Assembly (NCBI GenBank): GCA_003838145.1
Contig: QYZZ01000057.1
Span: forward strand, 1 to 64,000
DNA: 64,000 bases
From: Tindallia sp. MSAO_Bac2
Lineage (GTDB): Bacteria > Bacillota > Clostridia > Peptostreptococcales > Tindalliaceae
Direction of reading: 5' to 3'
The notes below the pieces were generated by a model that made no database searches, had not been told where the DNA came from, and saw nothing but the letters and a program-made list of their open reading frames with translations. Positions 54,574 through 56,918 of this stretch are shown in pieces (the stretch's first letter is position 1; every line of letters starts with the position of its first letter). Position numbers and translations under genes: made by a program.

Positions 54574-54599
54574 ATAAGCATGACAAATGTCATGCTTAT
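54574..54599. promoter_or_regulatory. 12-bp inverted repeat operator over the -35 region
   Basis: Perfect arms 54574-54585 and 54588-54599 (ATAAGCATGACA/TGTCATGCTTAT) are separated by 2 nt. The repeat covers the -35 of the plus-strand YbjQ promoter and lies 125-150 nt upstream of the divergent DUF418 gene. No T-run follows, so a protein-binding site is more likely than a terminator. Confidence 0.7.
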
Positions 54600-55258: not shown

Positions 55259-55303
55259 AAGCCATAGTGCGATTAAAATTTATTCGCTCTATGGCTTTAT
55301 TTA
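55259..55303 (+). terminator. Terminator of the YbjQ operon
   Basis: A 9-bp stem AAGCCATAG/CTATGGCTT (55259-55267/55289-55297) with further inner pairing is followed by TATTTAAT, a weak T-rich tail. Confidence 0.65.
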
Positions 55304-55333: not shown

Positions 55334-55882
55334 CTATGATTGACGGATTGTATCAACAATGGGTTGTATCGATTCTTTGTTCATAAAGTCAACTGGATTT
55401 TGGATGCATTCCAGAACTCCACGATCTTCTTCTGTCCGCTCTTCTTCCTTTTTGCTTTTAATTTTTGCTGCCAAGGCTTTCATCATCATTTTGTGGGTAA
55501 ATTTTTGTTTTTTATGGTCATAGGCTCCTCGCAATAAGAAGAAATCAGCTTTTTTCTTCATTTCCGCCGTTAGGTTCGCTTCCCGAACTTCATTAATGAA
55601 TTTTTCTACAACAGGCGAAAGGCCCACAGCACAAATGATAATTCGTTTGTCCTTTATTTGATCATACATTTTATGAAAGGTTTTCATACCGTTTATGCCG
55701 GCTGCATAGAGTCCGCCGCCAAAAACAATGACATCATATTTTTTCAGGTCATCGGCTTTTATGCTATCCAGATCAAAACAGTTCCCACCAGTTTCTTCAG
55801 CAATCCACTCGGCATATTGCTTTGTGCTGCCATAAAAACTTTTATACAGTACAACTGCCCGCTTGTTTTCTTTCTTTTCCAT
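55334..55882 (-). CDS. Flavodoxin-domain protein
   Basis: This 182-residue FMN-binding electron-transfer protein has the phosphate loop 'YKSFYGSTKQYAEW', a flavin-stacking region 'VIVFGGGLYAAGINGM' and the strand 'RIIICAVGLSP'. The family (flavodoxin_5/protoporphyrinogen-oxidase-like) often serves quinone or haem-precursor chemistry; here a basic insert 'KALAAKIKSKKEEERTEEDR' precedes the C-end. The ATG at 55882 follows GGGGGA. It lies 29 nt after the FMN-binding membrane protein gene. Confidence 0.9.
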   Translation of the reverse strand: MEKKENKRAVVLYKSFYGSTKQYAEWIAEETGGNCFDLDSIKADDLKKYDVIVFGGGLYAAGINGMKTFHKMYDQIKDKRIIICAVGLSPVVEKFINEVREANLTAEMKKKADFFLLRGAYDHKKQKFTHKMMMKALAAKIKSKKEEERTEEDRGVLECIQNPVDFMNKESIQPIVDTIRQS

Positions 55883-55911
55883 TTTGATTCCCCCACTCAT
55901 GAATTGATCAA

Positions 55912-56295
55912 TTATTTCATTGCATTTTCTATGGCTTTTAAATATGTTTTAGAGGTAACCGTCGCACCGGAAACCACTTCCACTTGTGTGCTTTGGCCTT
56001 CTATTACAGAATCCGTAAGTTCACGAATTGCATCATCCTGCTTTTCACGGGGCTGATCATTAGCAATTATTTCGGAAACTTTCCCGTTTTTAATAATCAC
56101 TTCGACTTCATTATTCCACCTGTAGAACTCAATGGAGCCCAGGTATGAACCGTCTTCTTTTTGGGAAAAATCGATGTCTTCCACCACCAATTCCGCGCCC
56201 TCTTCCAGACCTCTTGTCAGAAAGAACAGACCTGCAGCTGCTAAAAGCACGATGACTGCCGCCGCTACACCAGCAACCTTAAAAACTCTTTTCAT
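55912..56295 (-). CDS. Membrane-anchored FMN-binding domain protein
   Basis: This protein of about 128 residues has one N-terminal helix (about 7-27) with no lipobox, then an extracytoplasmic FMN-binding domain whose 'VEVVSGATVTSK' carries the Thr that receives FMN covalently (from the ApbE transferase) in the Rnf/Nqr/PplA family. It is a likely extracytoplasmic electron carrier. AAAGGAAG precedes the ATG. It is between a MarR gene and a flavodoxin gene. Confidence 0.9.
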   Translation of the reverse strand: MKRVFKVAGVAAAVIVLLAAAGLFFLTRGLEEGAELVVEDIDFSQKEDGSYLGSIEFYRWNNEVEVIIKNGKVSEIIANDQPREKQDDAIRELTDSVIEGQSTQVEVVSGATVTSKTYLKAIENAMK

Positions 56296-56326
56296 CCTCA
56301 ACTTCCTTTCAAAATAGTTTTTTCCT

Positions 56327-56785
56327 TTAAAATTCTTCCACCGCCTGAAACAGTTTTTTAAACAGACTTACGGTCATTTTTACTTCTTCGTCGCTTACAT
56401 TTTTATATAACTTTTCTAAAAACTGATTTTGTTCAGCTTCTTTCCCTTTCCAATAATCCTTGCTTTTTTCTGTTAATTTAAGACGAAGCACCCGTCCGTC
56501 TGACTCGTCTTTTTCAAACACTAAAAACTCTTTTTGCTGAAGCTTCAGAGCCATCTGCTTAACATTTTGATGGGAAGTCCCCATTAATCTTGCCACATCT
56601 CCCAGGGTCGGTCCTTGCCTTTCGTCAAACTGAAGGATCATAACCGTTAAAAACCATTGACGAAGCGTCATATCGTCTTCTGCCAACGTCTGGTCTCCCA
56701 ATGCCTGAAGTCGGTTAGAAAGCAAAAAAATACTTCCAAAAATAAACTTTTTATCATCCAGACTGCTATCTGCTTTTACCTGCAT
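56327..56785 (-). CDS. MarR-family transcription regulator
   Basis: This 152-residue winged-helix protein has dimerisation helices at both ends, recognition helix 'RLMGTSHQNVKQMALKLQQK' and wing 'EKDESDGRVLRLKLTEKSKD'. It has no cysteine, so ligand rather than thiol sensing is expected. The ATG at 56785 has GGAGG 6 nt upstream. It is first in MarR-FMN protein-flavodoxin and very probably represses this operon through the palindrome in front. Confidence 0.92.
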   Translation of the reverse strand: MQVKADSSLDDKKFIFGSIFLLSNRLQALGDQTLAEDDMTLRQWFLTVMILQFDERQGPTLGDVARLMGTSHQNVKQMALKLQQKEFLVFEKDESDGRVLRLKLTEKSKDYWKGKEAEQNQFLEKLYKNVSDEEVKMTVSLFKKLFQAVEEF

Positions 56786-56817
56786 TTTCAACCTCCACTA
56801 AATATGTAATATGTTAC

Positions 56818-56845
56818 CCACTTATGTAATATATTACATAAGTGG
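56818..56845. promoter_or_regulatory. 28-bp perfect palindrome, probable MarR operator
   Basis: Arms CCACTTATGTAATA (56818-56831) and its exact complement (56832-56845) are contiguous. The core TATGTAATATATTAC recurs imperfectly beside it at about 56803-56816 (TATGTAATATGTTAC), giving two binding sites. The palindrome covers the -10 and part of the spacer of the operon promoter, ideal for autorepression. Confidence 0.85.
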
Positions 56846-56856
56846 TGACAAGTCAA
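56828..56856 (-). promoter_or_regulatory. Promoter of MarR-FMN protein-flavodoxin operon
   Basis: -35 TTGACT (56856-56851), a 17-nt spacer and -10 TATATT (56833-56828), the latter inside the palindrome. Confidence 0.78.
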
Positions 56857-56887: not shown

Positions 56888-56918
56888 TGCAAAAACTCCC
56901 CCTTCTGCAAGAGGGAGT
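56888..56918 (-). terminator. Terminator of the YhdH-like gene
   Basis: A 10-bp stem ACTCCCTCTT/AAGGGGGAGT read on the minus strand (56918-56909/56904-56895, one G-U) is followed by TTTTTGC. Confidence 0.85.

What the first reader, a model, noticed from the sequence alone, without database searches (positions are those of the whole stretch)
55334..56856. MarR-controlled extracytoplasmic flavin module with a 28-bp perfect palindrome
A MarR regulator, a membrane-anchored protein with a covalent-FMN motif facing outwards, and a cytoplasmic flavodoxin form one operon. A perfect 28-bp palindrome plus a second imperfect TATGTAATATGTTAC copy sits on the -10. The gene set links inside and outside flavin carriers and could be a redox or quinone-stress response, or a small electron-export path.
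Basis: partly seen in the sequence, partly recalled or inferred. Interest (0 to 1): 0.5.

Follow-up and report, generated by a model that had tools for sequence, protein, structure and literature searches.

The report
Self-repressed operon of two flavin proteins
A bacterium carries a small three-gene operon whose own repressor most likely sits on a doubled palindrome at the promoter and controls two flavin proteins, one probably outside the membrane and one inside; the same repressor and DNA signal recur in many related bacteria, so the switch looks real, but what the flavin proteins do is still unknown.

Summary
A perfect 28-bp palindrome (56818-56845; the only one with arms of 9 bp or more in the window) and a second copy 20 bp away lie on the promoter of an operon: MarR regulator, membrane-anchored FMN_bind protein, flavodoxin. 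Relatives of this MarR carry the operator GTAAYRYRTTAC before their own operon: 11 or more of 12 positions in 40 of 59 loci and 19 of 24 further loci, against 0 of 21 more distant MarR genes, often as pairs spaced 20 bp. The pair is unique in its genome. It also precedes MarR genes with other cargo, so it is most likely the operator of a local autorepressor. Flavodoxin and/or FMN_bind share the operon in 38 of 59 loci (0 of 21 controls; 3 of 24 at phylum level). The FMN acceptor Thr/Ser is kept in 19 of 19 FMN_bind genes, the window's included. Inducer and role are not shown; haem synthesis and bilirubin reduction are disfavoured; no electron conduit is recognised in the operon. New variant of a known kind; moderate interest.

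The parts
56851..56856 (-). -35 box TTGACT
   Evidence: Consensus scan; TTGAC-like box with a 17-bp spacer recurs in relatives
56828..56833 (-). -10 box TATATT, inside operator 1
56818..56845 (.). Operator 1: perfect 28-bp palindrome; 20-bp core 56822-56841
56802..56821 (.). Operator 2: second 20-bp copy (core GTAACATATTAC on the minus strand, 56806-56817), 20 bp from operator 1
56327..56785 (-). MarR-family regulator gene (152 aa from ATG 56785; a TTG at 56791 is a less likely start)
55912..56295 (-). FMN_bind protein gene, 127 aa: basic N-terminus, one hydrophobic helix (by eye), FMN_bind domain
55960..55962 (-). Codon of the candidate FMN acceptor Thr in VVSGATVTS
55334..55882 (-). Flavodoxin_5 gene, 182 aa, with a helical insert before the last helix
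55259..55297 (.). Hairpin, likely terminator between this operon and the converging YbjQ-like gene

Best explanation
A local, self-repressing switch. MarR dimers bind two adjacent 20-bp operators, about two helical turns apart, that cover the -10 box and the start site, and so block transcription of their own operon (inferred from footprints; binding itself not shown). A ligand, not identified, presumably releases the repressor. The operon then makes more MarR, a membrane-anchored protein whose domain outside the cell receives FMN on a Thr from the ApbE of the genome (inferred), and a cytoplasmic flavodoxin whose helical insert resembles that of a flavodoxin known to handle tetrapyrroles. The likeliest role is inducible disposal or buffering of a redox-active compound, with one flavin protein on each side of the membrane; that role is a guess, while the switch has strong comparative support.
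For: Operator GTAAYRYRTTAC at 10 or more of 12 positions upstream in 51 of 59 loci of this MarR (shuffles: mean 9.4, max 20), 44 of 51 without the 8 loci that seeded the profile, and at 11 or more in 40 of 59; further loci from a phylum-wide search 19 of 24 at 11 or more (shuffles mean 0.35, max 3); more distant MarR genes 0 of 21 at 11 or more (5 of 21 at 10). Hits (9 or more) spaced exactly 20 bp: 26 pairs v mean 0.35, max 3 in shuffles. The site also stands before MarR genes without the flavin genes: 17 of 21 at 10 or more, against 34 of 38 with them. A promoter near the operator in 45 of 51, with the -10 at offset +4 or +6 from an operator core start in 27. Operator pair found once in the genome, no second place within 3 mismatches. 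Flavin genes in the operon in 38 of 59 v 0 of 21 controls, in several gene orders. FMN acceptor kept 19 of 19; FMN_bind profile hits 8p2b, named Clostridiaceae bacterium FMN4 domain 1, at 1.3e-11 with SGAT aligned. One ApbE match.
Against: No binding or expression data. At 11 of 12 the operator is found in only 9 of 21 loci without flavin genes, against 31 of 38 with them. No shuffle control was run for the promoter geometry, and operators of this sequence hold -10-like letters of themselves. At phylum level only 3 of 24 relatives have the flavin genes, and other cargoes are common, such as one family in 16 of 45 loci, so the ligand may have nothing to do with flavins. FMN_bind and flavodoxin occur together in only 12 of 59. 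The operon is patchy: at 0.001 the MarR was found in one of three other genomes of the genus and none of three of the family. The match of recognition helix and operator centre (39 of 39) rests on 1 to 3 independent contrasts and has exceptions among the further loci (L121, L117). Single-protein MarR score is just under Pfam's cut-off.
Confidence: 0.75

Rival explanations
1. Quinone or oxidant stress operon in the manner of MarR regulators that control quinone reductases (recalled): MarR senses the compound and the flavodoxin reduces it.
For: MarR plus a flavodoxin-fold protein; four relatives pair the MarR with FMN_red-like frames (Pfam FMN_red for L062 and L074; L075 and L097 by eye). C. difficile CD2207, a putative flavodoxin with one or two extra helices, is predicted to share a transcript with a MarR gene (PMC10913485, passages).
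Against: No inducer known; in the passages seen, CD2207 is not among the flavodoxins named as induced by oxidants. The outside FMN protein has no obvious part in it.
Confidence: 0.35
2. Small electron-export path: the cytoplasmic flavodoxin feeds electrons to the outside FMN protein for an extracellular acceptor.
For: One inside and one probably outside flavin carrier under one repressor; ApbE in the genome.
Against: No conduit between the two sides is recognised among the three genes; the partners are often apart.
Confidence: 0.12
3. Tetrapyrrole operon like bilQRS, hemG or hmuF: the flavodoxin acts on bilirubin, protoporphyrinogen or a haem breakdown product.
For: Flavodoxin insert; FldH (8g64) is the best Foldseek match and has the longest alignment among the 50 listed VIA rows, 156 residues, Z 11.9; weak BilS and HemG scores in 3 of 10 proteins each of the insert class and a stronger but sub-cut-off HemG score in L057 (63.2 v 142); MarR scores weakly with BilQ.
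Against: No PF00724 (old yellow enzyme, the family to which BilR was assigned) and no ferrochelatase match in a 97.5% complete genome, while 13 and 8 of 14 control genomes have them. BilQ 30.8 v cut-off 125. The window flavodoxin itself has no BilS or HemG hit to 0.001.
Confidence: 0.15
4. The palindrome is a site for another regulator or a chance repeat.
For: No direct binding data; the operator is weaker in loci without flavin genes at the strict threshold.
Against: It stands before this MarR subfamily across cargoes and not before more distant MarR genes.
Confidence: 0.05

Closest known systems
bilQ-bilR-bilS (bilirubin reductase operon; PMC10769871, passages seen)
   Same: MarR gene with a flavodoxin-like gene, described in Clostridioides and Clostridium strains; weak sequence likeness to BilQ, and to BilS in relatives
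   Different: No PF00724 protein in this genome; far under the BilQ cut-off; an FMN_bind gene and no bilR
C. difficile CD2207 with a MarR gene (PMC10913485, passages seen)
   Same: Putative flavodoxin with extra helices between fifth strand and fifth helix, predicted in one transcript with a MarR gene
   Different: The MarR gene lies downstream there; that predicted transcript has two genes, no FMN_bind
HmuF/FldH of Fusobacterium nucleatum (PMC10404700, abstract and passages seen)
   Same: Flavodoxin with a helical cap after the fifth strand; best Foldseek match and longest listed alignment
   Different: 17-22% identity; haem ligand His134 could not be mapped
ApbE-flavinylated FMN_bind proteins (PMC8238504 and PMC11334425, passages seen)
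   Same: SGAT motif in an FMN_bind domain
   Different: The main text of neither contains the word MarR; the flavinylated flavodoxins of the second paper are Flavodoxin_4, not Flavodoxin_5
MarR regulators with paired operators, such as MexR and ZitR (recalled, no call)
   Same: Palindromes of about 20 bp in pairs at the promoter, autoregulation
   Different: Operator sequence and cargo

Membership tests
MarR autorepressor | MarR-type protein | tested here: met
   Profile of 8 relatives matches 42 distinct solved sequences at 1e-5, best 3nqo at 8.8e-22; the single protein is just under Pfam's cut-off, 26.1 v 27
MarR autorepressor | Palindromic operator at its own promoter, conserved among relatives | tested here: met
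MarR autorepressor | Protein binds the operator and a ligand releases it | not testable with these tools
   Needs gel shift and induction
ApbE-flavinylated FMN_bind protein | FMN_bind domain with [ST]GA[ST]-like motif | tested here: met
   31.3 v 22 bits; SGAT; acceptor Thr in 18 and Ser in 1 of 19, four of them with S or T in place of the A
ApbE-flavinylated FMN_bind protein | ApbE in the genome | tested here: met
   One match, 299.7 v 25.6 bits
ApbE-flavinylated FMN_bind protein | Domain faces outwards | tested here: inconclusive
   Basic N-terminus then one hydrophobic helix, read by eye; no topology program was run
ApbE-flavinylated FMN_bind protein | Covalent FMN | not testable with these tools
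   Needs expression with ApbE
Flavodoxin_5 flavodoxin | Pfam score over cut-off, phosphate loop | tested here: met
   81.6 v 27; YKSFYGST
bilQRS bilirubin reductase operon | BilQ over cut-off and a BilR-family enzyme present | tested here: not met
   BilQ 30.8 v 125; no PF00724 match in the genome
HemG protoporphyrinogen oxidase | HemG-level score and a ferrochelatase in the genome | tested here: not met
   PRK11104 not among the window protein's hits to 0.001; no PF00762 match
HmuF/FldH haem-binding flavodoxin | Helical cap with axial His | tested here: inconclusive
   Cap-like insert and longest listed alignment to 8g64, but model pLDDT 68.9; a nearly invariant His (H130) could not be aligned to His134

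The most novel reading that the evidence does not exclude
A redox module not described in the papers I could search: one MarR sensor jointly controls an ApbE-flavinylated carrier outside the membrane and a cap-bearing flavodoxin inside that reduces a tetrapyrrole- or quinone-like compound, the outside protein handling the same compound or its electrons before uptake or after export.
Probability: 0.2. Interest if true: 0.6.

Novelty: new variant of a known kind. Interest (0 to 1): 0.4.

Why it matters
With the operator read off from 83 loci (59, 24), the local targets of this MarR subfamily can be proposed from sequence, and its varied cargoes (flavodoxin, FMN_bind, DUF6544-like and unnamed membrane proteins) become candidates for one shared inducer. 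It also gives small, probably flavinylated proteins of unknown role a testable regulatory handle.

Tried and rejected
Rejected: chance palindrome; site of another regulator; a wider regulon in this genome (pair found once; the 18-bp core within 3 mismatches gives three other places, and the reversed control pattern also gives 3); HemG and BilR roles.

Led nowhere: the genome-contig scan with the FMN_bind protein gave 3 partial matches, in Roseovarius, Microbulbifer and Pelagibacterium records, not used; phmmer of the flavodoxin in PDB found nothing at 0.01 and only weak hits up to 10; the profile of insert-bearing flavodoxins did not reach 8g64 and that of the mixed set aligned it only before the cap, so His134 could not be mapped. 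Literature: no paper with all terms MarR, FMN-binding protein, flavodoxin, operon, Clostridium; with flavinylation, one RNF/NQR review; the paired-operator search listed 3 papers, none on topic by title and abstract start; the search with Clostridioides difficile and quinone listed one, on lactate oxidation.

Limits and results against my reading: helix and operator centre no longer agree throughout in the further loci; flavin genes in only 3 of 24 there. The 24 further loci are not wholly independent: L114 looks like a near copy of L055, three genomes give two loci each, and some are from one genus. The 21 controls are lower-scoring matches; three have a shortened upstream stretch (L027, L028, L031) and L045 scores close to the subfamily. 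Matches without a locus were not examined; L047-L049 were dropped. The models for flavodoxin and FMN_bind were built from loci that are among the 59. Eight of 59 loci lack an operator at 10 of 12; in some, L050 for one, the frame probably begins too far upstream and hides the promoter. Gene orders start from one MarR gene per locus.

Full report
What is there. On the minus strand the window holds MarR (56327-56785), FMN_bind (55912-56295) and a Flavodoxin_5 protein (55334-55882). Upstream sit TTGACT-17-TATATT (5 such sites found in the region, 4.6 expected), a perfect 28-bp palindrome at 56818-56845 and a second copy 20 bp away. No other perfect palindrome without a loop and with arms of 9 bp or more exists in the 64 kb; the longest arm in 100 shuffles was 11 against 14 here. 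A strong hairpin at 55259-55297 closes the unit against a converging YbjQ-like gene. A terminator-like site at 56898-56917 (2 found, 1.1 expected) lies between it and the acrylyl-CoA-reductase-family gene upstream.

What the palindrome is. I searched the MarR in 60 related genomes (27 with a match at 0.001), then a profile of 8 relatives in 393 genomes of the order (53 with a match at 1e-20) and 391 of the class (43); the sets overlap. 59 loci were read. Upstream of the operon, GTAAYRYRTTAC at 10 or more of 12 positions occurs in 51 of 59 (shuffles mean 9.4, max 20), and hits spaced exactly 20 bp make 26 pairs (shuffles mean 0.35, max 3); spacings of 21 and 25-27 also recur. Leaving out the 8 seed loci gives 44 of 51. 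At the stricter 11 of 12: 40 of 59, 19 of 24 further loci from a phylum-wide search (24 of 398 genomes matched; L114 looks like a near copy of L055), and 0 of 21 more distant MarR genes (5 of 21 at 10). In the same-genus relative L018 the perfect palindrome grows to 40 bp, I think because neighbouring half-sites stand in 20-bp register. The 28 bp here are one 20-bp operator plus four bases on each side.

How it acts. In 45 of 51 loci with an operator a promoter lies near; the -10 box is at offset +4 (17 loci) or +6 (10 loci) from an operator core start, +4 in the window; no shuffle control was run for this. Operator 2 then covers the expected start site. The pair is found once in the genome, with no second place within 3 mismatches. 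The site is also found in loci without the flavin genes: 17 of 21 at 10 of 12, against 34 of 38 with them; at 11 of 12, 9 of 21 against 31 of 38. Part of the gap is a group with a CTAG centre, which scores 10. So the site goes with the regulator, less strictly in MarR-only loci. Two dimers side by side that block RNA polymerase is the natural reading (inferred). Recognition-helix residue and operator centre agree in 39 of 39 loci that could be classed (KQ with YRYR, KK with CTAG), but there is one independent contrast on well-supported branches, three on all, and the further loci hold exceptions (L121, L117). I treat it as suggestive.

The cargo. Of 59 loci, 38 have flavodoxin and/or FMN_bind in the operon: M-F 19, M-B-F 6, M-B 5, M-F-B 2, B-M-F 2, B-M 2, and two with a second MarR; controls 0 of 21. 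Both are there in 12. On the MarR tree, where 22 of 56 inner branches are weak, FMN_bind changes state at least 10 times and flavodoxin 14, so the partners were gained or lost repeatedly. At phylum level the link is weak, 3 of 24. Distribution is patchy even nearby: at 0.001 the MarR was found in one of three other genomes of the genus and none of three of the family. In 45 loci (the 21 without flavin genes and the 24 further ones) the next gene belongs to one family in 16 (Pfam DUF6544, checked on L071 only) and to two unnamed families in 5 and 4.

FMN_bind. The acceptor is Thr in 18 and Ser in 1 of 19 genes, the window's included; in four the A of SGAT is S or T. The family profile aligns over SGAT with 8p2b, named Clostridiaceae bacterium FMN4 domain 1 (1.3e-11). 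The genome has one ApbE match, with a hydrophobic N-terminus (by eye). The FMN_bind protein has a basic N-terminus and one hydrophobic helix, so the domain should face out (by eye).

Flavodoxin. In an alignment of 14 relatives, 10 have a helical insert and 4 are plain; the window protein is of the first kind, in which H130, M133 and M134 are nearly invariant. A model made without an alignment (pLDDT 68.9) matches FldH, the haem-bound flavodoxin of F. nucleatum, best in Foldseek (7.6e-5) and over the greatest length of the 50 listed rows in VIA-align (156 residues, Z 11.9, tied in Z with plain flavodoxins). PMC10404700 (abstract and passages) reports that FldH and HmuF bind haem under a helical cap and reduce anaerobilin. 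This hints at a tetrapyrrole- or quinone-like substrate, no more: the model is of modest quality and His134 could not be mapped.

What is known. bilQRS pairs a MarR and a flavodoxin-like protein with bilirubin reductase (PMC10769871, passages); this genome has no match to PF00724, the family of BilR. C. difficile CD2207 is predicted to share a transcript with a MarR gene (PMC10913485, passages). The two flavinylation papers do not contain the word MarR in their main text (PMC8238504, PMC11334425, passages). I found no paper describing this three-gene set in the searches; that library holds open-licence papers only.

Verdict. The regulatory part is well supported by comparison, the flavinylation of the FMN_bind protein is likely, and the physiological role is open.

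Noticed in passing
L071, L072, L073, L076, L078, L088, L092, L094, L096, L121, L126-L129, L131, L132: In these 16 loci the same MarR subfamily precedes a conserved protein of unknown function (one member, L071:659-1483, is Pfam DUF6544).
   Followed up: partly
L063:514-1431, L065, L095, L116, L119; similar proteins by eye in L051, L053, L064: A family of multi-helix membrane proteins with no Pfam match to 0.01 (checked on L063) follows the same MarR or its flavodoxin.
   Followed up: no
L061, L082: Two MarR genes of this subfamily in one operon with the flavin genes, orders M-F-M-B and M-M-B-F.
   Followed up: no
L062:2489-3079, L074:1956-2489, L075, L097: FMN_red-type frames take the flavodoxin's place or join it next to the MarR (Pfam checked on L062 and L074, the others by eye).
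   Followed up: partly
G000 contig C58, L113:1322-4590: A frame with CxxCH motifs beside cytochrome-biogenesis-like membrane proteins (by eye) in a genome with no ferrochelatase match: haem may come another way.
   Followed up: no
54574-54599: Perfect 12-bp inverted repeat with 2 bp between the arms, just before the 54608 frame; another possible operator.
   Followed up: no
L122, L124, L125, L128, L129, L131, L132, L136: A MarR group with QNAKR in the recognition helix has operator copies often centred on CATG, in pairs 23 or 25 bp apart.
   Followed up: no
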